Part shown: piece by piece, positions 14,864-60,007 of the stretch
Layout: every line of letters begins with the position of its first letter
How positions within the stretch are numbered: position 1 is the first letter of the stretch
Assembly: GCA_017471505.1 (NCBI GenBank)
Contig: JAFUTC010000002.1
Coordinates: 30,951-94,950 of the forward strand
Length of the DNA stretch: 64,000 bases
DNA from: Alloprevotella sp.
Lineage (GTDB): Bacteria > Bacteroidota > Bacteroidia > Bacteroidales > Bacteroidaceae
Reading direction: 5' to 3'
Translations under genes and position numbers: made by a program
The notes under the pieces: generated by a model
The model's input: the letters and a program-made list of their open reading frames with translations, nothing else
Database searches by the model: none
What the model was told of the DNA's origin: nothing

Positions 14864-14968
14864 ATCGCATTATGAAATCGCAAAATTCCATTATACAATC
14901 TGAAAATTGCATTATGGAATTGGCAAATTGCATAATTGGATTTTTCTGCGCCATTATGCAATCCGTGC
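14864..14968 (+). repeat. 21-bp phased palindrome array A (5 units)
   Basis: Five units start at 14864, 14885, 14906, 14927 and 14948, exactly 21 bp apart. The 15-bp cores are ATCGCATTATGAAAT, ATTCCATTATACAAT, ATTGCATTATGGAAT, ATTGCATAATTGGAT and GCGCCATTATGCAAT. The spacer before the last unit is T-rich and the last unit starts GCG, a polarity shared with the arrays at 25809, 40858 and 52414. The array lies between the rubrerythrin terminator and the purA promoter. Confidence 0.9.
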
Positions 14969-15027
14969 ATCGAATGCCGTTGCTGAAAAATATTCTTACA
15001 GAATGGTGCCGAACAAGGATGTTTTCG

Positions 15028-15035
15028 TATCTTTG
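15028..15035 (+). promoter_or_regulatory. -7 element of purA promoter
   Basis: TATCTTTG matches TAnnTTTG, 33 bp before the purA ATG and 59 bp after array A. No clear TTG is present at the expected -33 position. Confidence 0.6.
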
Positions 15036-15068
15036 TAAAGTTAAGCGAACCAAAAAGACAACACTGAC

Positions 15069-16337
15069 ATGACAAAAGGAAAGGTCGACGCGCTGCTGGG
15101 CATAGTTTTCGGCGACGAAGGTAAGGGTAAAGTGGTTGATTTCTTTACGCCACGCTACGATGCGGTAGCCCGCTATGCCGGAGGTCCCAATGCCGGGCAC
15201 ACCATCTTGTTCGAAGGTAAGAAATTCGTACTGCGCTCCATTCCCTCGGGCATCTTCTGCGAAAACACGCAGAACTTCATCGGCAACGGGTGCGTGATAG
15301 CCCCGGACCTGTTTATGAAAGAAGCGCGCGAACTTGAGGCAGCAGGCTACGACCCCGCCAAGCGCATCCACATCAGTATGCGCGCTCACCTCATCCTGCC
15401 CACGCACCGCGTGCTGGACCTTGCCTACGAAGCCGCAAAAGGCAAAAACAAGGTTGGCACCACGGGAAAAGGCATCGGCCCTACCTATTCGGACAAAGCG
15501 GCCCGCATCGGCTTGCGCGTGGGAGACATCCTGGAAAACTTCACCGAGAAATATGCCGCGCTGAAAGCCCGCCACGAGCAGATATTGCGCGACCTGAACT
15601 ACACGAACTATGACCTGGCAGAAACGGAGCGTGAATGGTTCGAAGGCGTCGAATATATGAAACGATGCCACCTGTGCAACACCGAAACGGAACTGAACCG
15701 CCTGCTGGCAGAAGGCAAGAACATACTGGCAGAAGGCGCACAGGGCTCGTTGCTCGATATCGACCACGGCACTTACCCGTTCGTATCGTCGTCGTCGACC
15801 ACGATAGGCGGCGTCTGCACTGGCCTGGGCGTGGCGCCGAGGGACATCGGCCGCGTCTTCGGCATCTTCAAGGCCTATTCCACACGCGTAGGCGCCGGTC
15901 CGTTCCCCGTAGAACTGTTTGACACGGTGGGCGACGAAATCCGCCGTATCGGCCACGAATACGGAGCCGTGACGGGACGCAACAGAAGGTGCGGATGGCT
16001 CGACCTGGTAGCCTTGAACTACGCCATCACCATCAACGGCGTGAGCGACCTTGTGCTGATGAAGAACGACGTACTCGACACGTTCGACACCATAAAGGTA
16101 TGCACGGCCTACACGAAAGACGGCGTCACCACCACCGACATGCCCTACGACACCGCAGGCTGGCAGCCCATCTACGAAGAACTGCCGGGCTGGAAGACTC
16201 CGCTCACCGACATCAGGCAAGAGGAATACTTCCCCGAACGCTTCAAAAACTACATCAACTACATCGAAACCCACACGAACACGCCCATACACATTGTCAG
16301 TGTGGGGCCCGACCGCGAAGCAACCATTCTTCGCTGA
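15069..16337 (+). CDS. purA: Adenylosuccinate synthetase
   Basis: PurA joins IMP and aspartate with GTP to make adenylosuccinate, the first step from IMP to AMP. The 422-residue protein is slightly shorter than the E. coli enzyme (432). Visible are the P-loop GDEGKGK, NAGHTI with the IMP-contacting residues, TGKGIGPTYSDKAARIGLR, EGAQGSLLDIDHGTYPFVSSS, and GAVTGRNRRCGWLDLVALNYA near the C-terminus with the GTP-binding region. It has its own promoter and is separated from corA by a 219-bp leader region. Confidence 0.97.
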   Translation: MTKGKVDALLGIVFGDEGKGKVVDFFTPRYDAVARYAGGPNAGHTILFEGKKFVLRSIPSGIFCENTQNFIGNGCVIAPDLFMKEARELEAAGYDPAKRIHISMRAHLILPTHRVLDLAYEAAKGKNKVGTTGKGIGPTYSDKAARIGLRVGDILENFTEKYAALKARHEQILRDLNYTNYDLAETEREWFEGVEYMKRCHLCNTETELNRLLAEGKNILAEGAQGSLLDIDHGTYPFVSSSSTTIGGVCTGLGVAPRDIGRVFGIFKAYSTRVGAGPFPVELFDTVGDEIRRIGHEYGAVTGRNRRCGWLDLVALNYAITINGVSDLVLMKNDVLDTFDTIKVCTAYTKDGVTTTDMPYDTAGWQPIYEELPGWKTPLTDIRQEEYFPERFKNYINYIETHTNTPIHIVSVGPDREATILR

Positions 16338-16360
16338 AATTGCATAAATCACTCAATTCG

Positions 16361-16392
16361 TTTGGATGTTTCAACAAAAAACACCACTTTTG
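16361..16392 (+). promoter_or_regulatory. Probable promoter of corA with long leader
   Basis: TTTG (16361-16364), 20 bp, then CACTTTTG (16385-16392) is one base from the Bacteroidota consensus. It would produce a transcript with a leader of roughly 155-160 nt before corA. Confidence 0.55.
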
Positions 16393-16421
16393 CGCTCACA
16401 AATCAAACTATAGCCAAACGT

Positions 16422-16531
16422 CCGTGCCCGCCTTGACGGCACACGGCCATAGGCAAACCGAACAAATGGACGACTATTACGCGGAAAACCAAAACTGATT
16501 CGACCGGAAACTACGCATAGCTTTCCGATCG
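16422..16531 (+). promoter_or_regulatory. Structured corA 5' leader with two hairpins
   Basis: Hairpin 1 (16422-16446) pairs CCGTGCC with GGCACACGG, with one bulge. Hairpin 2 (16501-16531) pairs CGACCGGAAA with TTTCCGATCG, with one mismatch. Neither is followed by a T-run. They lie inside the predicted leader of a magnesium transporter gene and may be regulatory; they do not look like a known riboswitch class to me. Confidence 0.35.
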
Positions 16532-16556
16532 GACTATCTTATTTTAGCAGAAAGTT

Positions 16557-17483
16557 ATGCGAACCTACTGGAACATCAGCCAAACGCTGCGTATGCTTGA
16601 TGAATGGCAGCCCAACTGCTGGACTCAAGTCACCTGCCCTACTACCGACGACGAAGAGTTCCTCTTCAACAAGTTGGAAATCCCTACCTACTTTCTCGAC
16701 GACATACGAGACAAGGACGAACGCTCACGCTATGAATACGACGAAGGGTGGACGCTCATCATCTTGCGTATCCCATACGTGAAAGAAGTACGCAGCCGCA
16801 CTCCGCACACTACCATCCCTCTCGGCATCATACTGAACAAGGGCATATGCGTTACGGTGTGCAACTACGAGACGAACATGATGATTGACTTCGTATCGTA
16901 TCAGCAGAAACGCAATAGCGGATTCACCGACTCGGTGGACCTGGTGTTCCGCTTATTCCTGTCAAGCGCCGTATGGTACCTGAAACGACTCAAGCAGATA
17001 AACGTGCTCATCGAAGAGGCAAAGCGCAACCTGGACCACAGTATCGACAACGAGGACCTCATAAACCTGAGCCGTCTCCAAGATAGCCTGACTTACTTTA
17101 CCACCTCCATTCGCGGCAACGAAACCTTGCTAGCGAAACTGAAGTTTAAGCTGCCTGTCGACGAGCTTGATGCCGACCTGATTGAGGACGTGAACATTGA
17201 GATGAACCAGGCCCGGGAAACGACTAACATATACGCAAACATCCTTGACTCCACGATGGAGACCTACGCCAGTATCATCAACAACAATATGGCCGGCGTG
17301 ATGAAACAACTCACAAGCGTGAGCATCATCCTCATGTTCCCGACGCTCATCGCCAGTATTTTCGGCATGAACCTCTTTAGCGGAATGGAGACCGCCGTAT
17401 GGGGATTCCCCACCGTCATAGTCGGCTCGCTCCTCGTGACAGGTGTATTCTATTGGTGGTTCCGTCGGAAAACCTGGCTGTAG
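16557..17483 (+). CDS. corA: CorA-type magnesium/cobalt transporter
   Basis: The 308-residue inner-membrane protein has the CorA layout: a large cytoplasmic alpha/beta domain (about residues 1-240), a long helix leading to the membrane, and two C-terminal transmembrane segments. The first ends in the signature GMN (IFGMNLFSG), the second is VGSLLVTGVFYWWF, followed by a short basic tail. CorA works as a pentamer and mediates passive uptake of Mg2+ (also Co2+ and Ni2+). The gene is preceded by a long structured leader and appears to be transcribed alone. Confidence 0.92.
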   Translation: MRTYWNISQTLRMLDEWQPNCWTQVTCPTTDDEEFLFNKLEIPTYFLDDIRDKDERSRYEYDEGWTLIILRIPYVKEVRSRTPHTTIPLGIILNKGICVTVCNYETNMMIDFVSYQQKRNSGFTDSVDLVFRLFLSSAVWYLKRLKQINVLIEEAKRNLDHSIDNEDLINLSRLQDSLTYFTTSIRGNETLLAKLKFKLPVDELDADLIEDVNIEMNQARETTNIYANILDSTMETYASIINNNMAGVMKQLTSVSIILMFPTLIASIFGMNLFSGMETAVWGFPTVIVGSLLVTGVFYWWFRRKTWL

Positions 17484-17654
17484 CATTCTGAGACACAAAA
17501 AGTCTGCAAAAAAGACCGCGAGAATTTTCCTATCCCGCCAAAAATCCTTTTATTTGCATTGAATAAGTAACCAGCAACTATCTGCCGTAAGCCTATCGGC
17601 ACGACAGACGGTTGCCTATGCACATTTTATTACCCTCTCACTGCTTTCAAAACT

Positions 17655-19547
17655 ATGGAAGAAAAAAAACTCACCGAAAACGAAGAAATCAAAGAAGTAA
17701 TCGTTGAAAACGAAAATCCAGTTGTCGCCGACGAGCAACCTGCTGCCGAACCCGACCCCACAGTCGAGCCGGAAGACACACCTGCCGACAGCGACAATAA
17801 AGATGAGGAGAAAAAAACACCTCAGTCGAAAGCAGACGTACTTGACATCCTAAAGGAAGTGGCTCAGAACGGCGGCAACATTCGTCGTCAGGACCTGGAA
17901 GCCCTTAAACAGGCCTACCATCGCTATCGCACGGCCGAAATAGCCAAAGAACGCGAAGATTACCTGGCTGGCGGCGGACAAGAAGACACCTTTATCCCCA
18001 CGCCCGACCCCGATGAGCAGAACTTCAAGGCACAATACAACCTGATTCGCGAACAAAGAGCAAAATTTGCCGAAGAAGAAGAAAGCGAAAAGAAACAAAA
18101 TCTGGCACGCAAACTTGAAATCATTGAACAAATCAAGCAAGCCGCCACGTCGCCCGATGAAGCCGACAAAAACTACGAACTTGTCAAGCAACTGCAAGCC
18201 AAGTGGAAAGAGATTAAATTAGTGCCGGCCGAGAATGCCACTGAGTTGTGGAAGAATTACCAGCACCATGTGGAGCAGTTCTACGACCAACTGCACCTCA
18301 ACTACGAGGCACGCCAGTACGACTTTAAGAAAAATCTCGAAATCAAACTCCGCCTGTGCGAGGCCGTAGAGAAACTGGCCAACATGGACGATGTAATCTC
18401 TGCATTCCACCAACTTCAGAACCTGCACCAGCAATTTCGCGAGACAGGCCCCGTTGCAAAAACCGAGCGCGAAGCAGTATGGAATCGATTCAAGGATGCT
18501 TCCACCGTCATCAATAAGCGTCATCAGGCATACTTCGAGGAGCAGAAAAAAGCCGAATTAGAAAACCTGGAGAAAAAAACGGCACTCTGCGAAGAAATCG
18601 AGCAAATCGACGTCGACCAAATAAGCGGACGCAGCGAATGGGAAAAGTTTACCAAGAAAATCATAGACATACAGACCCGCTGGAGAGCCATCGGCTTCAC
18701 TCCGCGTAAGCAAAACGCCGAAATCTTTGAGCGTTTCCGCGCCGCCTGCGACAAATTCTTCCAGAAGAAAGCCGCTTTCTTCAAGGAACAGCGTGAAAGC
18801 TTTGCCGCCAACCTTCGCGCCAAGAACGAACTCGTTCAAGCCGCCGAAGAACTCAAGGACAGCACCGAATGGAATAAAACTACCAACAAAATCATCGAAC
18901 TTCAGAAACGATGGAAAGAAATTGGTCCGGTAGCCCATAAAGCAAGCGAAACCGTTTGGCAACGTTTCAACGACGCATGTAATTATTTCTTCGAGAAGAA
19001 GAATGAAGCCACCTCGGGCCAACGGCAAGAAGAGGCCGAGAACCTTGCAAAGAAGTTGCAGATTATTGCCGACCTTGAAAAACTGGCTGAAGAAAAAGCC
19101 GACGATATTGCCGAAAAATTCCACCAACTGCAAGATGAGTGGGCCAATACGGGGCATGTTCCGTTCCGTAAGAAAGAAAAAATCTATCGCCAATATCGCG
19201 AAGTGTGCGACAAGCTTTACGAAGAATTCCACCTTTCTGCCCGTCGCCGCGAGGTAGAAAACTTCCGCAAGCACGTATCCGAGAAATCCGGAAGTTCGCT
19301 CGAACGCGAGATTGCACGCTTGCAGGCCGCTTTCGAAGCCAAAAAGGAAGAGATAAAGAACTACGAGACCAATCTTTCATTCTTCAGCAGCAAATCGAAA
19401 ACGGGCAATTCGCTGGTAGAAGAGATTAACAAGAAGATTGAACACTTGAAGCAAGACCTCCAAGTATTGGCCGACAAAATCAGTGCCGCACAATCGCAGG
19501 AAACTACTGAGCAGTCCGCCGACGAAACGGCTGAAACTGAAGTCTAA
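17655..19547 (+). CDS. DUF349 repeat protein
   Basis: The 630-residue cytoplasmic protein has an acidic, low-complexity N-terminus (about residues 1-60), then a highly helical body with repeats built around W-x-x-I-G or W-K-E-I followed by F-x-x-A-C and F-F-x-K-K (for example TRWRAIGFTPRKQNAEIFERFRAACDKFF and KRWKEIGPVAHKASETVWQRF), about 70-75 residues each. These are DUF349 repeats, predicted three-helix coiled units. A C-terminal coiled coil ends the protein. DUF349 proteins are common in Bacteroidota; their function is unknown to me. Codon use is A-rich because of the Lys and Glu content. Confidence 0.88.
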   Translation: MEEKKLTENEEIKEVIVENENPVVADEQPAAEPDPTVEPEDTPADSDNKDEEKKTPQSKADVLDILKEVAQNGGNIRRQDLEALKQAYHRYRTAEIAKEREDYLAGGGQEDTFIPTPDPDEQNFKAQYNLIREQRAKFAEEEESEKKQNLARKLEIIEQIKQAATSPDEADKNYELVKQLQAKWKEIKLVPAENATELWKNYQHHVEQFYDQLHLNYEARQYDFKKNLEIKLRLCEAVEKLANMDDVISAFHQLQNLHQQFRETGPVAKTEREAVWNRFKDASTVINKRHQAYFEEQKKAELENLEKKTALCEEIEQIDVDQISGRSEWEKFTKKIIDIQTRWRAIGFTPRKQNAEIFERFRAACDKFFQKKAAFFKEQRESFAANLRAKNELVQAAEELKDSTEWNKTTNKIIELQKRWKEIGPVAHKASETVWQRFNDACNYFFEKKNEATSGQRQEEAENLAKKLQIIADLEKLAEEKADDIAEKFHQLQDEWANTGHVPFRKKEKIYRQYREVCDKLYEEFHLSARRREVENFRKHVSEKSGSSLEREIARLQAAFEAKKEEIKNYETNLSFFSSKSKTGNSLVEEINKKIEHLKQDLQVLADKISAAQSQETTEQSADETAETEV

Positions 19548-19576
19548 ATCTATTGTTCCTATCAATCAATCTATAG

Positions 19577-19622
19577 CAGAAAGGGAAGCGCCATGACCAT
19601 TGGCGTCTCCCTTTCTTTTTCC
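19577..19622 (+). terminator. Terminator after DUF349 gene
   Basis: AGAAAGGGAAGCGCCA pairs with TGGCGTCTCCCTTTCT (one mismatch) and a T-run follows. A TTG that could extend the next reading frame lies inside this hairpin, which argues against using it as a start. Confidence 0.85.
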
Positions 19623-19656
19623 GCTCCGCAACCCATTCACCCACGCCATTTCCCCT

Positions 19657-21949: not shown

Positions 21950-21964
21950 ATTGCATTATGTAAT
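21950..21964 (+). repeat. Solo copy of the 21-bp array palindrome
   Basis: ATTGCATTATGTAAT followed by TTTGAA is a single unit of the array family. No second unit occurs 21 bp on. It lies between the GH89 gene and a lipoprotein promoter. Confidence 0.7.
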
Positions 21965-25808: not shown

Positions 25809-25934
25809 ATTCAATTATGGAATGAAAAAATTGCATAATTGAATTTTGAAATTGCATTATGGAATTTTCCGATTTCATAATGCAATTTTTTTGTCGCATA
25901 ATCGAATTTCCAGCCGCCATAATGCAATCTGCCG
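25809..25934 (+). repeat. 21-bp phased palindrome array B (6 units)
   Basis: Six units start at 25809, 25830, 25851, 25872, 25893 and 25914 without any drift from 21 bp. Cores: ATTCAATTATGGAAT, ATTGCATAATTGAAT, ATTGCATTATGGAAT, ATTTCATAATGCAAT, GTCGCATAATCGAAT, CCGCCATAATGCAAT. The spacer after unit 4 is TTTTTT and the next unit starts with a GC-richer half, the same order as in other arrays. It is the longest array in the window. Confidence 0.92.
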
Positions 25935-26065
25935 GCATCCCATTTCAGCCAGTCGGCAGGAGGGTCGCGCGCGCCCGTATGCGTACTTTATGGAGCAGGC
26001 GCACGGACAAACGAACCTACAGGAGTATCGTATGGTTAAAAAATCTTAAATTATTTTATTTTTAC

Positions 26066-26088
26066 AGTACTTTGTATTGCATAGTACT
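26066..26088. promoter_or_regulatory. Dyad operator overlapping the PadR promoter
   Basis: AGTACT (26066-26071) and AGTACT (26083-26088) flank a partly symmetric 11-bp centre; about nine of eleven pairs match overall. AGTACT is itself palindromic. The dyad covers the predicted -33 region (TTG at 26077-26079) of the PadR gene, the classic position for autorepression. Confidence 0.6.
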
Positions 26089-26108
26089 AAAATAAACATA
26101 TATCTTTG
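26077..26108 (+). promoter_or_regulatory. Promoter of padR-pspC genes
   Basis: TTG (26077-26079), 21 bp, then TATCTTTG (26101-26108), a full match to TAnnTTTG. The PadR ATG is 47 bp downstream. Confidence 0.7.
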
Positions 26109-26155
26109 CGGTGTAATAGAACTATTGTATTATAAAATCACCCAAAAACAAGGAT

Positions 26156-26491
26156 ATGAACACTGACAACCAAAAGATGCAGATGCGCAAGGGTATGTTG
26201 GAATACTGCGTGCTCTTGCTGCTGAGCCGCCAGCCCTACTACGCCTCGGACATCATAGGCGAGCTGAAGCAGGCCAGGCTCATCGTGGTGGAAGGAACGC
26301 TCTATCCACTACTCACTCGCTTGAAAAAAGACGGGCTGCTTAGTTACGAATGGCGCGAGAGCACACAAGGGCCTCCGCGCAAGTATTATGCGCTCACCGA
26401 CGAAGGGCGGATGGTGCTGACGGACCTCGATGCGGCCTGGAACGAACTGGCCGAAACCGTCGGACTGCTGAAGTCGGCACGCGAGGCATAG
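26156..26491 (+). CDS. PadR family transcriptional regulator
   Basis: The 111-residue protein is a short PadR repressor consisting of a winged helix only, with one C-terminal helix for dimerisation. Visible are RKGMLEYCVLLLLSRQPYYASDIIGELKQ (helices 1-3), VEGTLYPLLTRLKKDGLLSYEW (recognition helix) and GPPRKYYALTDEGR (wing). PadR proteins of this size repress nearby transporter or stress operons and themselves. Here a dyad overlaps its own promoter, and a PspC-type membrane protein and an efflux system lie downstream. The next gene begins 49 bp on and is probably co-transcribed. Confidence 0.93.
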   Translation: MNTDNQKMQMRKGMLEYCVLLLLSRQPYYASDIIGELKQARLIVVEGTLYPLLTRLKKDGLLSYEWRESTQGPPRKYYALTDEGRMVLTDLDAAWNELAETVGLLKSAREA

Positions 26492-34160: not shown

Positions 34161-34238
34161 ATTGCATTATGGAATTTTGAATTTACATAAGGAAATTTTT
34201 AAATTGCATTATGAAATTTTTCGCTTTCATAACTGTCT
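34161..34238 (+). repeat. 21-bp phased palindrome array C (4 units, degenerate)
   Basis: Units start at 34161, 34182, 34203 and 34224. Cores: ATTGCATTATGGAAT, TTTACATAAGGAAAT, ATTGCATTATGAAAT, CTTTCATAACTGTCT. Units 2 and 4 have decayed but stay in the 21-bp register, and the TTTTCG spacer before the last unit keeps the shared polarity. It fills most of the gap between the tolC-like gene and the NatA-type ATPase gene. Confidence 0.85.
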
Positions 34239-40326: not shown

Positions 40327-40812
40327 CTATAGGCCTACGTAGTCGCCACCGGCTCCTATGTAACCGGAAGAGAGCACAAATACCGTATAAAAAATAGTGG
40401 ATACAAGTCCGCAGACAAATGAGGCCAATGCCCAGTTTCTTGCCCGGCGGCTGGACACAAGTGCCTCGTCGTAGTAGCCACTATTATACAATGAGTTGAC
40501 ACGCGAGGCATAGACAATCGAAATGACACCGAAAGGCATACAGCAGCATATGGTTGCCAAAATGGCCCATATAAGGTACGTTTCGGGCGCGGCAGGTTTC
40601 GGTTCGTCCGAAGCGGGCCGGACCTCCTCCACCTGTGGCGGCTGCGCATAAAAAAGGTCGGCCAGTTCGGGCACTTGGGATGCGGGGGCCCACTGAGGCA
40701 TTCCCTGCTTCCACACCAATGTTTCCGGCCGAACGCCAAAGGCGACGAGCCGGTCGGCCTCTACCGGACCCTGCTGCAAACCTGCATTGTCAATGTAATA
40801 GTATTGTTCCAT
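40327..40812 (-). CDS. GYF_2 and CD225 domain membrane protein
   Basis: The 161-residue protein starts with a GYF_2-type domain (YYYIDNAGLQQGPVEADRLVAFGVRPETLVWKQGMPQW, about residues 4-42), a Pro/Glu linker, then a CD225/dispanin membrane domain (YLIWAILATICCCMPFGVISIVYASRVNSLYNSGYYDEALVSSRRARNW), which is the fold of eukaryotic IFITM proteins, and a final hydrophobic helix. CD225 is thought to sit partly in the membrane and affect curvature; the bacterial role is unknown. It diverges from rplU across an array-bearing region. Confidence 0.88.
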   Translation of the reverse strand: MEQYYYIDNAGLQQGPVEADRLVAFGVRPETLVWKQGMPQWAPASQVPELADLFYAQPPQVEEVRPASDEPKPAAPETYLIWAILATICCCMPFGVISIVYASRVNSLYNSGYYDEALVSSRRARNWALASFVCGLVSTIFYTVFVLSSGYIGAGGDYVGL

Positions 40813-40857: not shown

Positions 40858-40962
40858 ATAGCATTATGGAATCGAAAAATTGCATAATTGAATTTCAAAA
40901 TTGTATTATGGAATTTCAGAATTGCATTATGTAATTTTTTCGCCGCATTATGCAACGGCAAA
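40858..40962 (+). repeat. 21-bp phased palindrome array D (5 units)
   Basis: Units start at 40858, 40879, 40900, 40921 and 40942. Cores: ATAGCATTATGGAAT, ATTGCATAATTGAAT, ATTGTATTATGGAAT, ATTGCATTATGTAAT, GCCGCATTATGCAAC. TTTTTC precedes the GC-starting last unit, as in arrays A and E. It lies upstream of both divergent genes. Confidence 0.92.
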
Positions 40963-50841: not shown

Positions 50842-52365
50842 CTATCGTCCCTGCAGAGTGCGGTTGAGTTGCTGCATCATGCGGTTCACCACCTTGGGGT
50901 TCTTCTGCGCCAGGTTGACCCCTTCGTAGCGATAGCGGTCGATGTCGTAGAGTTGCGGCTCGGAGGAGTAGCCCAGTTCAATATGTGTTTGCCAGGCTTC
51001 CTTGGGTCCCTTGCTGGGCGGGATTAGTTTCCATCGGTCTTGCCGCATCACGATGCTGCGGTTGTTAGGCATGGTGAGCGCAAAGGGGCAGTTGCGGTGA
51101 CTTCGGCCCGTCATGACGGCCAACAGCGCACGGCTGTCGGGCAGTGCGTCGGCAGGTACCGACTGGTTCAATAGTTGTGCCAGCGAGCGCGACAGGTCGA
51201 TGTGCGAGGCAAGTGCGTCAGACGTGGTGCCGGCAGGCACTTTCCCCGGCCAATAGACGATGTACGGGACGGCCGAACCGCCTTCGTAGGCACTATACTT
51301 ACCGCCTCGATAGGGACCGCTGGGGTTGTGGCTACCGGCCAGTTCCCATGCGCGGTCGGCATAGCCGTCGTCGAGCACGGGCCCGTTGTCGCTGGTGATG
51401 ATAAGCAGGGTGTTTTGGTCGAGACCAAGCCGGCGGAGCGACTCGCTTATCTGCCCCACCGTCCAGTCGAATTGCAGGATGGCTTCGCCCCGTAGTCCCA
51501 TCGGCGAAGTGCCGCGGAACCGTTCGTTCGGCATACGCGGCACGTGCACATCGTTGGTGCACAGGTAGAGGAAAAAGGGTTCGGCGCGGTTTGCCTCTAT
51601 GTATCGCACGGCATGAGCCACAATCGAGTCGGCAATATCCTCGTCGCGCCACAGTGCATGCCCGCCGCCTTTCATATAACCTATGCGGCCTATGCCGTTG
51701 ACGATGGCCTGGTCGTGTCCGTGCGAGGAGCGCAGTTGCAGCATCTCGGGATGCTCGCGTGCAATAGGCTCGCCGGCGAACGGATGCTGATAACTGACGG
51801 AAATGGGCGCATTGGCGTCCCAGTCGCATACGCGGCCGTCCTCAATCCATACGCAGGGCACGCGGTCGGCCGTTGCCGCCATCAAATAGTGGTAGTCGAA
51901 CCCGATGTCGCGAGGGGTTATGTCGAGCGGAGCATTCCAGTCCTGCTCGCCGGTCTTGTCGCCCAGCCCCAGGTGCCATTTGCCTATGGCCGCGGTCTTA
52001 TAGCCGGCCTGTCTGAACAGTTCGGCCATGGTAAACTGACCGGGGCGTATGATCATGCCCGCATCACCCGGTGCCACGTCCGTGCCCGGTCGGCGGAAAG
52101 GATATTCGCCCGTGAGCAGCGCATAGCGCGACGGTGTGCTGGTAGAGGCGCACGCGTGCATGTCAGTAAAGCGCACGCCGTGCCGAGCCAGACTGTCCAC
52201 CACGGGCGTATGCACCCGCGTGGCTCCATAGCACGACAGGTCGCCGTAGCCCAGGTCGTCGGCCACAAGCAGTATGACGTTGGGACGCTCGGTGCGTTGG
52301 GCCCATCCGCAAGTGGCGGCCGCCAGTCCGCACCCCAAGAGCATGCCGTGTTTTCCTATTCTCAT
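50842..52365 (-). CDS. Arylsulfatase, serine type
   Basis: The 507-residue secreted enzyme has a signal peptide ending at GWAQR and the sulfatase fold: NVILLVADDLGYGDLSCYGA (two metal-binding Asp), the modification motif CASTSTPSRYALLTGEYP, GKWHLGLGD, and LLIITSDNGPVLDDGY (third and fourth metal ligands). Ser76 in STPSR is the residue to be converted to formylglycine, so this is a serine-type (S1 family) sulfatase that needs the anaerobic radical SAM maturase; no such gene is in the window. Substrates may be sulfated host glycans. Array E lies just upstream. Confidence 0.94.
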   Translation of the reverse strand: MRIGKHGMLLGCGLAAATCGWAQRTERPNVILLVADDLGYGDLSCYGATRVHTPVVDSLARHGVRFTDMHACASTSTPSRYALLTGEYPFRRPGTDVAPGDAGMIIRPGQFTMAELFRQAGYKTAAIGKWHLGLGDKTGEQDWNAPLDITPRDIGFDYHYLMAATADRVPCVWIEDGRVCDWDANAPISVSYQHPFAGEPIAREHPEMLQLRSSHGHDQAIVNGIGRIGYMKGGGHALWRDEDIADSIVAHAVRYIEANRAEPFFLYLCTNDVHVPRMPNERFRGTSPMGLRGEAILQFDWTVGQISESLRRLGLDQNTLLIITSDNGPVLDDGYADRAWELAGSHNPSGPYRGGKYSAYEGGSAVPYIVYWPGKVPAGTTSDALASHIDLSRSLAQLLNQSVPADALPDSRALLAVMTGRSHRNCPFALTMPNNRSIVMRQDRWKLIPPSKGPKEAWQTHIELGYSSEPQLYDIDRYRYEGVNLAQKNPKVVNRMMQQLNRTLQGR

Positions 52366-52413: not shown

Positions 52414-52518
52414 ATTGTATTATGGAATAAAATTATTGCATTATACAATTTCGAAATTCCATAATGCAATTTTCCGATTGTATAATGCAATTTTTTCGCG
52501 CAATTATGCCATTTTTCA
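52414..52518 (+). repeat. 21-bp phased palindrome array E (5 units)
   Basis: Units start at 52414, 52435, 52456, 52477 and 52498. Cores: ATTGTATTATGGAAT, ATTGCATTATACAAT, ATTCCATAATGCAAT, ATTGTATAATGCAAT, GCGCAATTATGCCAT. TTTTTC precedes the GC-starting last unit. Although both flanking genes (tdk and sulfatase) run on the minus strand, the array has the same plus orientation as the others. Confidence 0.92.
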
Positions 52519-52545: not shown

Positions 52546-53154
52546 TTATTCGTCGAACAGTTTTCCCTCGGTGGCCGACTGGGCCGAGAGGGTTTCGTTG
52601 TAGCAGTGGCGGCATAGGGGCTCGTACTCCTGCTTTTCGCCGAGCAACACCTGCTTGTCGCCGGCCACGATACGGTGGGAGATGTGGGCCAGACTACCAC
52701 AACGCACGCAAATTGCATGCACCTTGGTCACTTCCTCGGCGATGGCGAGCAACGCGGGCATCGGACCGAACGGCTTGCCAAGGAAATCCATGTCGAGGCC
52801 TGCCACGATGACGCGCTTGCCGCGATTTGCCAATTCGTTGCATACGCTGACCAGCGAATCGTCGAAGAATTGTGCCTCGTCAATGCCTACTACCTCGGCC
52901 TCGGAAGCCAGCAGCAGGATGCTCTGAGGCGAATCGACAGGCGTTGAAGGGATATGCTTGCTGTCGTGAGAGACTACGTCTTCCTCCGAATAGCGCGTGT
53001 CGACGGTGGGCTTATATATTTCGACGCGCTGACGCGCAAACTGGGCGCGACGAAGGCGGCGTATGAGTTCTTCGGTCTTGCCCGAGAACATGGAACCGCA
53101 CACCACCTCAATGCGACCGCGCAAATTGGTTTCTTCTTGGAACACTGAGTGCAT
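52546..53154 (-). CDS. tdk: Thymidine kinase
   Basis: Tdk phosphorylates thymidine to dTMP with ATP, the salvage counterpart of thyA. The 202-residue type II enzyme has P-loop [14 protein letters not shown] (about residues 20-33), DEAQFFDD (Walker B), a flexible loop with [13 protein letters not shown], and the structural zinc site with Cys residues in CVRCG and CRHC. It diverges from argR; the two start codons are 143 bp apart. Confidence 0.96.
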
Positions 53155-53203: not shown

Positions 53204-53218
53204 ATTGCATTATGCAAT
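53204..53218. repeat. Solo palindrome ATTGCATTATGCAAT in tdk-argR gap
   Basis: This copy is a perfect dyad apart from its central base and lies in the divergent promoter region, 27 bp before the argR -7 element. No second unit follows at 21 bp. Confidence 0.75.
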
Positions 53219-53244: not shown

Positions 53245-53252
53245 TAACTTTG
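53245..53252 (+). promoter_or_regulatory. -7 element of argR promoter
   Basis: TAACTTTG matches TAnnTTTG, 45 bp before argR. The -33 region is AT-rich without a TTG. Confidence 0.6.
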
Positions 53253-53297
53253 CAAATACATATCACAATTGTAGCAACCTGAAAGTCAATTTGCTCT

Positions 53298-53789: not shown

Positions 53790-53816
53790 AATGCCAACCC
53801 GTCAGCCCGTCGCACT

Positions 53817-54425: not shown

Positions 54426-54437
54426 GACCTACGGAAA

Positions 54438-54475
54438 AAGCCACCTGCGATGCTCGTCGACAGGTGGCTTCTTTC
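54438..54475. terminator. Bidirectional terminator
   Basis: AAGCCACCTG pairs with CAGGTGGCTT around a 13-base loop, followed by CTTTC. It separates converging argR-operon and M48 genes. Confidence 0.8.
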
Positions 54476-54494
54476 AATCGGAATGTCAAGACCG

Positions 54495-55355: not shown

Positions 55356-55434
55356 AATTATAGTTAGGTTTGATATTTATTTCATTCGTCCTACAAAAAT
55401 AGAAAATTGTATAACTTAGATGCTCAAAATCCCA

Positions 55435-55442
55435 TAATTTTG
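55435..55442 (+). promoter_or_regulatory. -7 element of sialidase gene
   Basis: TAATTTTG, 24 bp before the ATG at 55467. The divergent M48 gene has CAAAAATA (its -7 on the minus strand) at 55394-55401. Confidence 0.5.
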
Positions 55443-55466
55443 CACTTGTTGTATAAGAATCTGCCC

Positions 55467-56768
55467 ATGAATCCCACGCACTCATCCCTGTGGCACCGCA
55501 CTTCCCGGTTCGTCGCCCTATTCATTGCGGCGACAGCCTGCATGGTAGCCGTCGCCCAGCCTATCGTGCTGTTCGGCAACACGCCTGCCGGCTATCCGGT
55601 GCGTATTCCCGCCATCGCACAGCATAGGGATGGCGCCCTGCTGGCCTTTGCCGGCAGTCTGAAGTGCGGCACCGACATCGGATTCGGACGGTGCGACATT
55701 CTCGTGCGAACCAGCAACGACCAGGGACAAACATGGAGCGAGCCTGCGGAAGTAATCTGCGGCACCGGAAGTCCTGACATCCGCACCGACGGACGCATCT
55801 ACGACGACTTCACCTATGGTTTCGGCGACATCGCAGTGGTCTGCGACGACGAAACCGGCTCCGTCCTGGCGCTATGTGCGGCGGGCGGAGTGGCATGGCC
55901 GTTCTCCGAAGTGACAAGTGGCTTGGACAAAGTGCTGCGATGCGGACAATTTCGCGGCAAGCCCGACGCGTCGGGACGCTGGACCTGGTTTCCGCCCGAG
56001 GACATAAGCGCAACCGTCTACGGCCTTATCCCCGCCTCGGCCAAGGCCGCATTCGTGGGCAGCGGCAAACTATGCCAGAGTCGCCGAATAAAGGCTGGTA
56101 CGCACCGCCGTATCTATGCGCCGTTTTGCACGCGCAACGGCAACTACGTGCTTTATAGCGACGACTTCGGCCATAGTTGGAAACCGCTGGGACACGGTGC
56201 CGGCGGTGCACAACTGGCTATTGCCGGCGGCGACGAACCTAAGTGCGAGGAACTTCCTAATGGCGACGTCCTGCTCAGCAGCAGAAAGGCACACGGCCGA
56301 TACTACAACATATTCAAATACCAGGACATCGAGTCGGCAAGTGGCTCGTGGCAAGACGCAGCCGACTCCGACTCGTTTGCCGATGGTTTGCATCTGGGCG
56401 GAAATGCCTGCAACGGCGAAGTGCTAATAGTCGATGCTGTCAGAAATGCCGACAGCCGCCCCGTGGCCCTGTTGCTCCAGTCGCTGCCTGCGGCCGACAC
56501 GCGCGCCGAAGTATCGATTGCCTATAAAGAACTGCCCGACCGTCCTACGCCTGCCGACATCGCGGCCCATTGGCCTACGGAAAACGTATGCCGCATAACC
56601 TCCCGCACCAGCGCCTACTCTACTATGTGCGTGCAGCATAACGGAACCATCGCGTTCTACTATGAAGAGAACTACACGCAGCAAGTAAAAATCGGCGACG
56701 GCTATGATCTCGTCTATCGCAACCTTACTCTCAACGAAATCACCCGTGGTGCCTACCGCATGAAGTAA
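55467..56768 (+). CDS. Exo-alpha-sialidase (GH33)
   Basis: The 433-residue secreted enzyme has an N-terminal signal peptide (FVALFIAATACMVAVAQ). The sialidase six-bladed propeller is shown by VRIPAIAQHRDGALLAFA (the FRIP-type arginine), Asp boxes SNDQGQTW and SDDFGHSW, the catalytic Glu in CEELPNGDVLLSSR, and a Tyr near the C-terminus (FYYEENY). It removes terminal sialic acid from glycoconjugates. The ATG at 55467 is chosen because the signal peptide begins there; an upstream in-frame ATG at 55407 precedes the predicted -7 element. Confidence 0.93.
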   Translation: MNPTHSSLWHRTSRFVALFIAATACMVAVAQPIVLFGNTPAGYPVRIPAIAQHRDGALLAFAGSLKCGTDIGFGRCDILVRTSNDQGQTWSEPAEVICGTGSPDIRTDGRIYDDFTYGFGDIAVVCDDETGSVLALCAAGGVAWPFSEVTSGLDKVLRCGQFRGKPDASGRWTWFPPEDISATVYGLIPASAKAAFVGSGKLCQSRRIKAGTHRRIYAPFCTRNGNYVLYSDDFGHSWKPLGHGAGGAQLAIAGGDEPKCEELPNGDVLLSSRKAHGRYYNIFKYQDIESASGSWQDAADSDSFADGLHLGGNACNGEVLIVDAVRNADSRPVALLLQSLPAADTRAEVSIAYKELPDRPTPADIAAHWPTENVCRITSRTSAYSTMCVQHNGTIAFYYEENYTQQVKIGDGYDLVYRNLTLNEITRGAYRMK

Positions 56769-56791
56769 CCCCTCGCAGCTAATCACTATCC

Positions 56792-57568
56792 GTGGAACCG
56801 ATACTCCGCTTCGACCAACTCACTACTGGCTACTCCGCCGGCCGACGACAGCACCTCGTGGGCCGCAACCTTAGCGCGCAGTTGCAAAGCGGGGTGCTGA
56901 CGGCCATCTTCGGGCTCAACGGCAGCGGAAAGACTACCTTGCTACGCACGCTGGCAGGCTTGCTGGCTCCCTTGTCGGGCCAACTGACCTACGGCAATAT
57001 GCCCCACACCGAAATCACACCCAAGCAGCTGGCTCGCACCATCGCGGTAGTGCTTACCGAAAGGCCGCAGACCGGCTACCTTAGGGTGCGCGAAATTGTC
57101 GAGATGGGACGGATGCCCTACACCTCGTTTTCGGGCCGCATCTCGGAACTGGACCGCCACGTGGTTATGGAGTCGATGCGACTGACAGGCATTGAGAAAC
57201 TTTCGCGCAGGCTGCTGTCGAGTTTGTCCGACGGAGAACGCCAACGCGTTATGATAGCGAAGGCTTTGGCACAGCAAACGCCCATCATCTTACTCGACGA
57301 GCCCACTGCCTTTCTTGATTTTGCGGCAAAAAACTATTTGCTGGACCTGCTTGTGCGGCTGGCGCACGAAGCGCATAAGACCATCCTGCTGAGTACCCAC
57401 GACGTGGGCCACGTAGTCGGTTGCGTGGACCAATGCTGGCTACTTTCGCGCGACGACCTCACCACCGGCACGCCTGCGGCCCTGTCGGCCGACGGCACAC
57501 TGGCCAGATTTCTGGGCGAAGATGCCTTCCAACGACTGGCCGGAACTACCTTTCAACCCACCACATAA
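56792..57568 (+). CDS. ABC transporter ATP-binding protein (FecE/BtuD type), orphan
   Basis: The 258-residue ATPase starts at GTG 56792. It has Walker A GLNGSGKTT, Q-loop, signature LSDGERQR (D in place of the common G), Walker B IILLDEPTAFLDF and STHDVGH. The sequence is of the iron-siderophore/cobalamin importer group. No substrate-binding or permease gene is adjacent: it lies 23 bp after the sialidase gene and 9 bp before topB. Either it serves a transporter encoded elsewhere or it is a remnant. Confidence 0.9.
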   Translation: MEPILRFDQLTTGYSAGRRQHLVGRNLSAQLQSGVLTAIFGLNGSGKTTLLRTLAGLLAPLSGQLTYGNMPHTEITPKQLARTIAVVLTERPQTGYLRVREIVEMGRMPYTSFSGRISELDRHVVMESMRLTGIEKLSRRLLSSLSDGERQRVMIAKALAQQTPIILLDEPTAFLDFAAKNYLLDLLVRLAHEAHKTILLSTHDVGHVVGCVDQCWLLSRDDLTTGTPAALSADGTLARFLGEDAFQRLAGTTFQPTT

Positions 57569-57577
57569 CTGAACGAA

Positions 57578-59638
57578 ATGATTGTATGTATTGCTGAAAA
57601 ACCCAGCGTAGCCCGCGACATTGCCCGCATATTGGGCGCCACGAAATCGTGCGAGGGCTATCTCGAAGGCAACGGCTACCAGGTGACTTGGACGTTCGGA
57701 CACTTGTGCGAACTTAAGTACCCGGAAGACTACACCGAGACCTGGAAGCGCTGGACACTCGGACAACTGCCCATGATACCCGCCCGCTTCGGCATTCGCC
57801 TCAAAGACGACTCCGGCATAAAGAAACAGTTCGCCACAATAAAGCAGCTCTTCGAAAAGGCCGAGCTGATTATCAATTGCGGTGATGCCGGACAAGAAGG
57901 CGAACTGATACAGCGCTGGGTGAAGCAGCAATCGGGCGCCACCTGCCCAGTAAAGCGTCTGTGGATCTCTTCGATGACCGACGAGGCTATTCGCGAGGGC
58001 TTCGAAAACCTGCAAACCGAGCAGAAGTACGACGGTCTGTATCAAGCCGGCCTTTGCCGCGCCATAGGCGACTGGATTCTGGGCATGAACGCCACTCGTC
58101 TCTACACGCTGAAGTATGGCCGGCGTGAACGCGGTGCTACTCCGCTCTCGGTGGGCCGTGTACAGACGCCGACCCTGGCTCTGATTGTGCGGCGGCAGCA
58201 GGAAATCGACCAGTTTGTGCCTACTCCCTACTGGGTGCTGGCTACGGAATACCGGCAAGTGCTTTTCACGGCGCAGGTGGACAGCGACGGCGACGCACAG
58301 GCCAGTCGGGCCACGCGCAATGCCTTTCTGAGCGAGGACGAGGCCAAGGATGCGCTCCGGCAGATTGAGGGAAAGCCGTTCGAGGTAGTATCGGTGCAGC
58401 AGAAAAACGGTTCTGAGGCTCCGCCGCGACTGTTCGACCTGACGTCGCTACAGGTGGAATGCAACAAGAAGTTCGGGTTCTCAGCCGAGCAGACCTTGCA
58501 ACTGGTGCAGAGCCTATACGAAAAGAAAATCACCACCTACCCGCGCGTCGACACCACCTATCTGCCCGACGACGTCTATCCTCGCTGTGCCCAGATGCTC
58601 AATGGGCTGAACGAATACTACGAGCCGCTGCTCCTGCCGTTGCGTGGAAAGAAACTGAAGAAGAGTGGAAAAGTGTTCGACACCAAGAAAGTGACCGACC
58701 ACCACGCCATAATCCCCACGGGCCATAAGCCCAACAACCTGACCGATATGGAGCGCAAGGTGTTCGACCTTGTTGCACGCCGCTTCATCGCCATCTTCCA
58801 CGACGACTGCCTATTCTCCACGACCACCGTAACGGGCCGCATCGAAAAAACCGATTTCCGCGCCACTGGCAAACAGATACTGCAGCCCGGCTGGAGGGTA
58901 GTTTTCGAAAAAGAAAAGGCGCAGACCGACGAGGACGAGGCAGAAACGAAAGACGAGGAACGAGTGCTGCCGGCATTCAACAAAGGCGAGAGCGGACCGC
59001 ACAAGCCCACGCTGACGCAGAAGCAGACACAGCCGCCCAAGCCCTATACCGAGGCCACCCTGCTCCGTGCGATGGAGACAGCCGGCCGTCAAGTGGACGA
59101 CGAAGACCTGCGCGACGCACTGAAAGACAACGGCATCGGACGCCCTTCTACCCGCGCAGCCATCATTGAGACTCTCTTCCGCCGCCGCTACATAGTGAAA
59201 GCAAAGAAGGCACTAATGCCCACGGCCACCGGCACCGACCTGATTGCCATCATCAAGGAAGAACTGCTCAAGAGCGTAGAACTGACCGGACAATGGGAAC
59301 GTAAACTGCGCGAGATTGAGCGTGGAACCTACGACGCCGCTACTTTCATCGGAGAGATGAAAGACATGGTACAGCAGATTGTCAATGAAGTGCTCAGCGA
59401 CAACAGTCAGCGCATCATCGAGAACGCACCTGCGCCGCAGCCCAAGCGAGCCGCTAGAAAACCGGACAGCACCCCGGCGGCCAAACGCATACGCGTCGGG
59501 TCGAAATGCCCCGTGTGCGGCGAGGGAAAAGTAATCAAGGGCAACACCGCCTACGGCTGCTCGCGCTGGCGAGAAGGATGCACGTTCCGACAACCCTTTG
59601 CCGCCAAGACTGCCAAGAGCCGCAAAAAACAAGCATAA
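57578..59638 (+). CDS. topB: DNA topoisomerase III
   Basis: TopB is a type IA topoisomerase that decatenates and relaxes negatively supercoiled DNA. The 686-residue protein starts MIVCIAEKPSVARDIARILGA (Toprim domain), has the metal-binding CGDAGQEGELIQRW and the active-site tyrosine in TTYPRVDTTYLP (Tyr321), and ends with one zinc finger (CPVCGEGKVIKGNTAYGCSRWREGCTF) and a basic tail. The 9-bp spacing to the orphan ABC ATPase gene suggests one transcript. Confidence 0.96.
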   Translation: MIVCIAEKPSVARDIARILGATKSCEGYLEGNGYQVTWTFGHLCELKYPEDYTETWKRWTLGQLPMIPARFGIRLKDDSGIKKQFATIKQLFEKAELIINCGDAGQEGELIQRWVKQQSGATCPVKRLWISSMTDEAIREGFENLQTEQKYDGLYQAGLCRAIGDWILGMNATRLYTLKYGRRERGATPLSVGRVQTPTLALIVRRQQEIDQFVPTPYWVLATEYRQVLFTAQVDSDGDAQASRATRNAFLSEDEAKDALRQIEGKPFEVVSVQQKNGSEAPPRLFDLTSLQVECNKKFGFSAEQTLQLVQSLYEKKITTYPRVDTTYLPDDVYPRCAQMLNGLNEYYEPLLLPLRGKKLKKSGKVFDTKKVTDHHAIIPTGHKPNNLTDMERKVFDLVARRFIAIFHDDCLFSTTTVTGRIEKTDFRATGKQILQPGWRVVFEKEKAQTDEDEAETKDEERVLPAFNKGESGPHKPTLTQKQTQPPKPYTEATLLRAMETAGRQVDDEDLRDALKDNGIGRPSTRAAIIETLFRRRYIVKAKKALMPTATGTDLIAIIKEELLKSVELTGQWERKLREIERGTYDAATFIGEMKDMVQQIVNEVLSDNSQRIIENAPAPQPKRAARKPDSTPAAKRIRVGSKCPVCGEGKVIKGNTAYGCSRWREGCTFRQPFAAKTAKSRKKQA

Positions 59639-59680
59639 TGCAGACGATTTGCACAAAAAAGCCACTTTTTTTTTGAAAAA

Positions 59681-59712
59681 TTTGTTCATATAATCCGAAG
59701 CATATATTTTTG
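59681..59712 (+). promoter_or_regulatory. Consensus promoter of tRNA-Gln
   Basis: TTTG (59681-59684), 20 bp, TATTTTTG (59705-59712), 38 bp before the tRNA. Confidence 0.8.
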
Positions 59713-59749
59713 CACCGCATTTGGGAAGGAACCCCCAAAGCCATACGAT

Positions 59750-59823
59750 TGGGGTATGGTGTAATGGTAACACTGCAGATTCTGGTCCTGCCTTTCCTGG
59801 TTCGAATCCGGGTACCCCAACCA
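59750..59823 (+). tRNA. tRNA-Gln (anticodon CTG)
   Basis: Acceptor stem TGGGGTA pairs with TACCCCA, the discriminator is A and CCA is encoded. The D arm is GTG/CAC with a TAATGGTAA loop. The anticodon loop is TTCTGGT, giving CTG (reads CAG). The T arm is CCTGG/CCGGG around TTCGAAT. The anticodon stem GCAGA/CCTGC has an A.C mismatch at 31-39. Length is 74 nt. Confidence 0.93.
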
Positions 59824-59828
59824 ATAGA

Positions 59829-59861
59829 GAAGTCCGCTGAAAAGTCAGCGGACTTTTTTTG
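59829..59861 (+). terminator. Terminator after tRNA-Gln
   Basis: AAGTCCGCTGA pairs with TCAGCGGACTT around an AAAG loop, followed by a run of T. Confidence 0.92.
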
Positions 59862-59902
59862 TAGCCCCTTGCAACCGGTTCACGCCAACGGACTACCTGA
59901 AA

Positions 59903-60007
59903 ATTGCATAATCGGACAGAAATATTGCATAATACGATTTCAAAATTGCATTATGGAATTTGAAAATTCAATTATACAATTTCACGATTTCATAATCCAA
60001 TTTTCCC
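59903..60007 (+). repeat. 21-bp phased palindrome array F (5 units)
   Basis: Units start at 59903, 59924, 59945, 59966 and 59987. Cores: ATTGCATAATCGGAC, ATTGCATAATACGAT, ATTGCATTATGGAAT, ATTCAATTATACAAT, ATTTCATAATCCAAT. It lacks the GC-starting final unit, but the CG-ATTTCATAAT junction aligns with array B in the plus orientation. Confidence 0.9.

What the first reader, a model, noticed from the sequence alone, without database searches (positions are those of the whole stretch)
14864..60007. Dispersed arrays of a 15-bp palindrome at an exact 21-bp period
Six intergenic arrays (A 14864, B 25809, C 34161, D 40858, E 52414, F 59903) contain 30 units in all. Each unit is a near-palindrome, ATTGCATWATGNAAT with a central W, followed by a 6-bp spacer, and every unit is exactly 21 bp from the next even where the sequence has decayed. 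Twenty-one bp is two helical turns, so all dyads face the same side of the DNA. This fits an array bound cooperatively by a dimeric protein, or a mobile repeat with nested units like the BrickBuilt elements I recall from Porphyromonas gingivalis. I recognise no published family with this consensus.
Basis: partly seen in the sequence, partly recalled or inferred. Interest (0 to 1): 0.8.

Follow-up and report, generated by a model that had tools for sequence, protein, structure and literature searches.

The report
Evenly spaced palindrome arrays, probable HU-protein sites
Short DNA palindromes, repeated every two turns of the helix, sit about every ten thousand bases between the genes of this uncultured bacterium, and related species carry arrays of the same design but different letters beside genes for a special HU-type DNA-binding protein, so they are probably docking stations that help organise the chromosome.

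Summary
The six arrays belong to a genome-wide set: 73 in 843 kb, all intergenic by my gene calls, 46 of them chains of five 21-bp units. The strict motif is absent from 60 related genomes, yet 12 of 20 genus mates sampled carry intergenic arrays of period 21-23 bp with other palindromes.

The decisive lead is a protein. Genes for a ~200-aa HU-plus-winged-helix protein (HU-HIG, PF18291) often carry such an array upstream: 16 of 20 loci fetched by protein alone, against 34 of 232 genes with long upstream gaps. The period follows the protein clade. In the window's own genome this gene's promoter array belongs to a second dispersed family: 13 arrays, all of three units. The two families together are spaced more evenly than chance (mean 9.9 kb; CV 0.44 against 0.92).

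No target duplications, near-identical copies or tandem-amplification signature were found, so a recent mobile element is unlikely. Best reading: cooperative docking arrays for HU-wHTH nucleoid proteins. Binding is inferred. The paralogue for the window's own motif was not found in the 77%-complete assembly, and the organising role rests on spacing alone.

The parts
14864..14962 (.). Array A: five 15-bp palindromes at 21-bp period, between genes 14236-14784 (+) and purA 15069-16337 (+)
   Evidence: adenylosuccinate synthetase by Pfam
25809..25928 (.). Array B: six units, upstream of a PadR-family gene (26156-26491 +)
34161..34217 (.). Array C: three clear units (a fourth decayed at about 34224), between an outer membrane efflux gene and an ABC transporter ATPase gene
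40858..40956 (.). Array D: five units between gene 40327-40812 (-) and the ribosomal protein L21 gene 41145-41462 (+)
52414..52512 (.). Array E: five units between a sulfatase gene (50842-52365 -) and gene 52546-53154 (-)
59903..60001 (.). Array F: five units, with a further in-register weak site at 60029; convergent gene pair
21950..21964 (.). Lone unit ATTGCATTATGTAAT, no clear in-register neighbours, intergenic
53204..53218 (.). Lone perfect unit ATTGCATTATGCAAT, no clear in-register neighbours, intergenic

Best explanation
The arrays are cooperative docking sites for a dimeric, sequence-specific nucleoid protein of the HU-wHTH type (HU domain plus C-terminal winged helix; Pfam HU-HIG). Each 15-bp palindrome would take one dimer. 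The 21-bp period puts all dimers on one face of the helix, so five of them coat about 105 bp in phase. Such arrays, one about every 10 kb between genes, would act as fixed chromosome organisers (loop anchors or supercoil-diffusion barriers), and a copy in the promoter of the protein's own gene would set its level. Species differ in their palindromes because the proteins multiply and change specificity, and their sites turn over with them. SHOWN by computation: the arrays, their geometry, intergenic placement, even spacing, lineage specificity, the HU-wHTH promoter arrays, the tie between period and protein clade, and one dispersed family in this genome sharing its motif with the HU-wHTH promoter. 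INFERRED: physical binding; the identity of the paralogue for ATTGCATWATGCAAT; the organising role.
For: (1) HU-HIG loci of the long type: 22 of 28 scored (27 of about 200 aa, one of 136 aa; two more dropped at first for a strand mistake) have a 20-23-bp-lag array of at least 27/42 identity in the 450 bp upstream, against 37 of 515 ordinary genes (Fisher P 2.6e-18). Eight of the 28 had been seen before the test; of the 20 fetched by protein alone, 16 of 20 pass, against 34 of 232 genes with an upstream gap of 200 bp or more (P 1.7e-9); with the two restored, 23 of 30. (2) Period follows the protein: one clade has 21 bp (5 of 6, the sixth 23), the other clades with an array 22 or 23 bp (0 of 22 at 21; P 6e-5, related genes counted apart). 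(3) Own genome: the HU-wHTH gene (C4:172970-173590) has three TTTCAAGSCTTGAAA units at 21 bp in its promoter; 12 further three-unit arrays of this motif are dispersed and intergenic in the 843 kb read. A weaker HU-HIG match of this genome (contig C15, 20.4 bits, below the cut-off of 26.2) has three AAGTATACTT units at 22 bp about 110 bp upstream. (4) In G080 an array of a family with 13 arrays at 21-23-bp steps (of 15 clusters) in 440 kb lies upstream of an HU-HIG gene at 314862. (5) Spacing: family 1 CV 0.57-0.62 against 0.98-1.00 by chance; families 1+2 0.44 against 0.92; G080, all families pooled, 0 of 36 gaps under 3.5 kb against 7.5-8.2 expected. (6) Selection, not copying: near-invariant core, near-independence of units, palindromes kept at the same place in two species 84% alike although units changed.
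Against: No gene for an HU-wHTH protein with an ATTGCATWATGCAAT promoter array was found in the assembly (6 PF18291 hits, 3 over the cut-off). The PF18291 model also rings on ordinary HU (9 of 14 control genomes). No binding data exist. Of 31 HU-wHTH genes of 190-222 aa, 3 fall below the array threshold and 3 more sit one match short of 27/42. Many array families in relatives have no linked HU gene in the stretches read, and HU-HIG genes of about 140 aa mostly lack a promoter array. The AAGTATACTT motif has only one other site in the 843 kb, so it is not a dispersed family there. Elements are a little more alike than independent columns predict (best pair 0.84 against 0.80, median best match 0.78 against 0.75; units within arrays z 2.2), so some copying is not excluded. 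The largest G080 family taken alone is not evenly spaced (CV 0.85 against 0.88, P 0.47). The organising role rests on spacing alone.
Confidence: 0.62

Rival explanations
1. The arrays are MITEs: non-autonomous mobile elements whose 21-bp units are transposase-binding sites (as in Mu, Tn7 or IS21 ends, recalled), spaced out by transposition target immunity.
For: Multicopy, intergenic, species-specific, symmetric element of common length; two syntenic gaps of 57 and 59 bp in the own genome are 546 and 186 bp with arrays in G077; target immunity would give a minimum spacing; elements are slightly more alike than independent columns predict.
Against: No target duplication above shuffled flanks, no conserved sequence beyond the units, no near-identical pair among 45 elements (best 84%), position-specific conservation, and arrays kept in place in sister species. 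Spacing holds across different families, which family-specific immunity would not explain. No transposase gene was tied to the arrays; only the Y1 family was searched.
Confidence: 0.13
2. The arrays are operators of an ordinary regulon: sites of a transcription factor (HU-wHTH or another, for example PadR) acting on neighbouring promoters.
For: Arrays lie in HU-wHTH promoters and upstream of a PadR gene in the window; its best match in G008 (79% identical) also lies beside an array.
Against: 13 of 73 lie between convergent genes, where no promoter is expected; intergenic gaps of at least 150 bp hold an array in 38 of 114 tandem, 16 of 62 divergent and 9 of 22 convergent cases; spacing is even along the chromosome.
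Confidence: 0.15
3. RNA or DNA hairpins: transcription terminators or REP/BIME-like elements spread by RAYT transposases.
For: Intergenic palindromes; BIMEs are themselves proposed supercoil barriers (PMC6907758, passages).
Against: Pairing is poorer than chance for unit hairpins (z -3.7) and for the whole-element hairpin (z -4.6); 16 of 73 lie between divergent genes; no Y1_Tnp hit in the own genome; of 20 Y1 loci in relatives 2 have a period-20-24 repeat within 1 kb, one of them with a motif seen elsewhere in its genome.
Confidence: 0.04
4. Minisatellites made by local replication slippage and kept neutrally.
For: Relatives such as G010 and G077 have arrays with near-identical units; G015 and G017 differ by about one whole 23-bp unit at the same site.
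Against: In the own genome units of one array are hardly more alike than units of different arrays (0.738 against 0.731, z 2.2); common unit numbers (five in 46 of 73 chains; three in 13 of 13 of family 2); even spacing.
Confidence: 0.04

Closest known systems
BrickBuilt of Porphyromonas gingivalis (PMC4596501; abstract, section 5 and found passages read)
   Same: Bacteroidales, intergenic, species-limited, tandem repeats with two-turn period (23 nt), 19 dispersed copies; one copy (BrickBuilt_14) beside an HU-family gene, PGN_0872.
   Different: Described with leader/tail segments, terminal inverted repeats and some target duplications, and with 1 to 22.8 repeats per copy; here 15+6-bp palindromic units, mostly five, no leader/tail, no duplications. 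Described as a MITE with promoter activity; the passages read do not treat it as protein-binding arrays.
REP/BIME elements of enterobacteria (features recalled; role as supercoil-barrier candidates from passages of PMC6907758)
   Same: Intergenic palindromic repeats, hundreds per genome, candidate topological barriers.
   Different: Longer units, tagged hairpins, RAYT-linked; here no RAYT link, no hairpin selection, exact 21-bp phase.
MatP/matS, Noc/NBS, ParB/parS (recalled)
   Same: Dedicated nucleoid protein with dispersed palindromic sites.
   Different: Those use single or few well-conserved sites; here phased arrays whose palindromes differ between species, with several families in one genome.
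HU-HIG proteins (Pfam PF18291)
   Same: The linked protein: HU domain plus wHTH.
   Different: I know of no published DNA target; my searches found none, but the library lacks most subscription papers.

Membership tests
BrickBuilt-type MITE | Leader and tail segments with terminal inverted repeats around the repeats | tested here: not met
   Flank columns beyond the units carry almost no conservation in 45 five-unit elements; only weak in-register site remnants.
BrickBuilt-type MITE | Intergenic, species-limited tandem repeat of about two helical turns | tested here: met
   73 of 73 arrays intergenic by my gene calls; strict exact pattern in 0 of 60 relatives.
MITE in general | Target-site duplication and recently copied near-identical members | tested here: not met
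   Duplication counts do not exceed 20 shuffles of the flanks; best pair 84% identical.
REP/BIME with RAYT | Cognate Y1 transposase flanked by the repeats | tested here: not met
   0 hits in the own genome (77% complete); of 20 loci in relatives, 2 have a period-20-24 repeat within 1 kb (L196, L209), only L196 with a motif seen elsewhere in its genome.
REP/BIME with RAYT | Selected hairpin (compensatory pairing) | tested here: not met
   Unit pairing below shuffled expectation, z -3.7.
HU-wHTH docking arrays (class proposed here) | Palindromic units at 21-23 bp in intergenic DNA | tested here: met
HU-wHTH docking arrays (class proposed here) | Same motif in the promoter of an HU-wHTH gene of the same genome | tested here: inconclusive
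   Met for family 2 of the own genome and for a G080 family; not found for the window's family 1 in a 77%-complete assembly.
HU-wHTH docking arrays (class proposed here) | Protein binds the array | not testable with these tools
   Needs gel shift or ChIP-seq.
HU-HIG protein family (linked gene, L286) | PF18291 above its curated cut-off, with a C-terminal HTH | tested here: met
   59.2 bits against 26.2; C-terminal stretch weakly matches DIP2311-like_C (22.5 bits, cut-off 27) and other HTH models, all below their cut-offs, so the HTH rests on weak matches and on Pfam's description of the family.

The most novel reading that the evidence does not exclude
Bacteroidales carry a genome-wide, regularly spaced grid of phased palindromic arrays read by a multiplying family of HU-wHTH proteins. 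The grid (about one array per 10 kb, whichever family supplies it) is what selection keeps, while the code of each protein and its arrays drifts and is replaced from species to species: a bacterial counterpart of rapidly evolving centromere or insulator systems, and a site-specific identity for the unknown barriers between supercoil domains.
Probability: 0.35. Interest if true: 0.95.

Novelty: new variant of a known kind. Interest (0 to 1): 0.86.

Why it matters
A review read here in passages (PMC6907758) says that the identities of supercoil-domain barriers in E. coli remain to be established. Here is a bacterium whose genome marks evenly spaced places about 10 kb apart with phased arrays, together with a candidate protein family, so the idea becomes directly testable. 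It gives HU-HIG proteins a likely DNA target, recasts 'minisatellite' repeats of Bacteroidales such as BrickBuilt as possible protein sites, and offers a case of fast protein-DNA co-evolution in which HU-wHTH genes seem to show their own code in their promoters.

Tried and rejected
Whole-element and unit hairpins: rejected by negative covariation. MITE: no duplications, no recent copies. Local tandem amplification: within-array unit identity 0.738 against 0.731, z 2.2. RAYT/Y1 transposase: no hit in the own genome, not tied to arrays in relatives. Terminator-only or promoter-only role: all three gene orientations used. Shared neighbour genes as cause: 12 of 32 relative genes beside arrays, against 48 of 169 others, have best matches beside arrays in the own genome; weak. 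PF14848 added only sub-threshold hits. Solved structures: best hits are distant HU chains for the HU domain (best E 0.043). Viral contigs and GTDB contigs: 0 matches to the strict pattern (own records may be left out). Syntenic test in relatives: only 61 adjacent pairs, little power. HU-like proteins in 27 loci of other Bacteroidales: one weak hit, no use. No structure prediction was run.
Full report
WHAT IS THERE. The window is part (C14:30951-94950) of a 1.44-Mb, 77%-complete genome assembly of a member of the Bacteroidales. The nearest named purA relatives are metagenome-assembled Prevotellaceae and Bacteroidales such as Candidatus Caccomonas pullistercoris (79%), and one genus mate (G016) has a contig of the same length as a record titled uncultured Alloprevotella sp.. 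A matrix built from the family finds 299 sites in 464 kb against 32 in one Markov-simulated copy, and the dominant spacing is 21 bp (123 successive sites; the 8/13-bp pairs are the secondary register of the same arrays). In 843 kb read from the same genome there are 73 arrays, none overlapping a predicted gene by more than 30 bp; 44 lie between tandem, 16 between divergent and 13 between convergent genes; 46 chains have five units, 12 six, 6 four, 2 three and 7 two. Gene calls are from my own simple caller.

ANATOMY. In 45 five-unit elements the central ATWAT is almost invariant over 225 units (222 to 225 of 225 at its four fixed letters), while positions 3, 4, 5, 11, 12 and 13 vary; the units were found with a matrix that rewards this core, which inflates the contrast. 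Unit 1 is the mirror image of unit 5, and A-tracts flank the left units as T-tracts flank the right ones, so the consensus element is symmetric. Perfect palindromes are avoided: complementarity within units and across the element is lower than in shuffled pairings (z -3.7 and -4.6), which argues against a hairpin function. Units of the same array are hardly more alike than units of different arrays (0.738 against 0.731, z 2.2), no pair of elements is nearly identical (best 84%), flanks are not conserved, and there is no target duplication above shuffles. Against full independence: the best and median best matches (0.84, 0.78) lie above an independent-column null (0.80, 0.75), so a faint trace of common descent remains. 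Weak in-register sites continue for up to seven units on either side of the centre, ranking first of 21 registers at distances 3 to 7 and not at 8. The picture is one of protein-binding sites under selection, not of recently copied or slipped DNA.

SPACING. Family-1 arrays are evenly spread: CV 0.62 (69 gaps) or 0.57 (61 gaps, stronger arrays), against 0.98-1.00 when arrays are dealt at random to intergenic gaps (none of 2000 trials as low); gaps under 4 kb are 3 of 69 or 0 of 61, where about 20 or 16 are expected.

RELATIVES. The strict, exact two-unit pattern is absent from 36 genus mates and 24 other Bacteroidales genomes, from GTDB contigs and from viral contigs. Yet stretches of 20 genus mates (790 kb) show intergenic arrays with other sequences whose lag is 21-23 or 42-44 bp in 33 of 42 cases, none at any lag in one shuffled copy; 12 of the 20 genomes have at least one. 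In 72 loci of distant bacteria (1.26 Mb) 0 of 6 arrays have such a lag. In 20 stretches of other Bacteroidales families 3 of 4 arrays have lag 22-23. In one relative, G080, all 37 arrays found in 440 kb have lag 21, 22, 42 or 44 and fall into more than ten mostly palindromic families by eye. In G008 and G020, which are 84% identical and syntenic, arrays of palindromes TGGCAAGGCYTGCCA stand at the same place although the units have changed, and in a second array one unit is inverted; G015 and G017 share an array that differs by about one unit. Against positional conservation over larger distances: none of 61 syntenic adjacent pairs has an array in both the own genome and a relative; 5 have it only in the own genome (one locus, five relatives) and 2 only in the relative.

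THE PROTEIN. Of 12 rare-family arrays in G080 whose neighbours I read, 3 stand beside an HU-like gene and one beside a broken HU-like frame; Pfam names the three HU-HIG. PF18291 hits occur in 58 of 58 genus genomes, but the model also rings on ordinary HU in 9 of 14 control genomes. I therefore looked at the long members, about 200 aa (HU domain plus C-terminal winged helix). In 28 loci scored (27 of about 200 aa and one of 136 aa) 22 have a 20-23-bp-lag array of at least 27/42 identity in the 450 bp upstream, against 37 of 515 genes of the same genus (P 2.6e-18). Eight of the 28 had been seen before the test. Of the 20 loci fetched by protein alone 16 pass; against genes with an upstream gap of at least 200 bp (34 of 232) P is 1.7e-9, and at a cut of 34/42 it is 8 of 20 against 15 of 232 (P 8.6e-5). 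The 20 were taken from a capped list of matches. With two loci re-oriented, two G010 genes added (both had been seen to have arrays) and rounding, 28 of 31 genes of 190-222 aa pass; three of these sit at 26/42. These arrays are mostly gene-specific palindromes, such as CAACCTAGGTTG, CACAGCTGTG, CACATATGTG and GACAATTGTC at four genes of G010. The period follows the protein tree: five of six in one clade have 21 bp (the sixth 23), and none of the 22 others with an array; related genes are counted apart. Shorter HU-HIG genes (about 140 aa) mostly show no promoter array. Binding itself is not shown.

THE OWN GENOME. The own HU-wHTH gene (C4:172970-173590) belongs to the 21-bp clade and has three TTTCAAGSCTTGAAA units in its promoter. 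That motif forms 13 arrays in the 843 kb, 13 of 13 with three units by my chaining rule, 13 of 13 intergenic; one simulated copy has no such pair. Dispersed arrays of G008/G020 and promoter arrays of clade mates in G020 and G035 have related cores around CAAGGCTTG or AAGGCTT, that of G036 a looser one; this is my reading by eye. A weaker HU-HIG match (contig C15, 20.4 bits, cut-off 26.2; HU-like domain plus a further stretch) has three AAGTATACTT units at 22 bp about 110 bp upstream, seen by eye, but only one other such site lies in the 843 kb. For the window's own family, ATTGCATWATGCAAT, no such gene was found among six PF18291 hits, three of them over the cut-off. About a fifth of the genome is missing, so I infer, and do not show, a missing paralogue.

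ONE SPACING RULE FOR ALL FAMILIES. Family-2 arrays lie far from family-1 arrays, mostly in their larger gaps (mean distance 9.2 kb against 6.7 expected, P 0.004). Pooled, the spacing becomes still more even (mean 9.9 kb, CV 0.44 against 0.92; 1 of 79 gaps under 3.3 kb, 18.6 expected). In G080, pooling all families, 0 of 36 gaps are under 3.5 kb, where 7.5 to 8.2 are expected (P 0.0002 for the smallest gap), though the CV signal is weaker (0.66 against 0.86-0.90, P 0.02-0.04). The largest G080 family alone (GTTTGN7CAAAC, 15 arrays) is not evenly spaced (CV 0.85 against 0.88, P 0.47): the evenness there appears only when families are pooled. This is what one would expect if families are interchangeable suppliers of one grid, and it speaks against family-specific target immunity; it rests on two genomes.

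MECHANISM. I propose that HU-wHTH dimers read each palindrome with their winged helices while the HU domains bend or wrap the DNA, that dimers two turns apart touch and fill an array cooperatively, and that filled arrays anchor loops or stop supercoil diffusion. The promoter array would give autoregulation. All of this paragraph is inference. The review PMC6907758 (passages) says that barrier identities remain to be established and names BIMEs as candidates.

PRIOR WORK. BrickBuilt (PMC4596501; abstract, section 5 and found passages read) is the nearest published repeat; its Table 1 places BrickBuilt_14 beside an HU-family gene, which the passages I saw do not discuss. Searches for HU-HIG targets or other Bacteroidales array papers found nothing further of use (open-licence papers only; a REP survey, PMC3733652, seen in the listing alone). 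A 2017 comparative paper on HU/IHF clades is recalled, not read; the phrase 'clades of the HU' was found only in the text of other papers.

Noticed in passing
window 25809-26491: Array B lies upstream of a PadR-family gene; the best-matching gene in relative G008 (79% identical) also lies beside an array of that species' own family.
   Followed up: partly
window 58531-58573: A 21-bp tandem repeat of another kind (CACCACCTACCCGCCCGACGA), inside a predicted gene.
   Followed up: no
G080 (unnamed relative), many places, e.g. C6:214142, 472767, 800452: 30 PF18291 matches in one genome, many with open frames of equal length (140 aa), as if carried by a multiplying element; one lies beside an array of the family CTCCTATAAGACAATTTT.
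   Followed up: partly
L063 / L067 (G020 / G008), about 8350: One unit of an array is inverted between two sister species while the 21-bp register stays: units may be replaced or flipped singly.
   Followed up: no
L056 3857-3940 and L059 9742-9848 (G015 / G017): Same array downstream of purA differs by about one whole 23-bp unit between species 94% identical.
   Followed up: no
L119 5302-5920 (Prevotella oulorum): A perfect 42-bp direct repeat in an intergenic gap; another 42-bp one at 754-1145. Possible members of the same class in a named species.
   Followed up: no
L120 5343-5666 (Bacteroidaceae RGIG7250): 22-bp array of the near-palindrome CTTAACGTGTTAAG.
   Followed up: no
G080:C5, about 578970-579050 (L331 985-1065): An array of the main G080 family lies about 430 bp upstream of a tandem pair of HU-HIG genes.
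   Followed up: partly
window 21950 and 53204: Two lone, near-perfect or perfect units of the motif without in-register neighbours; possible seeds or relics.
   Followed up: partly
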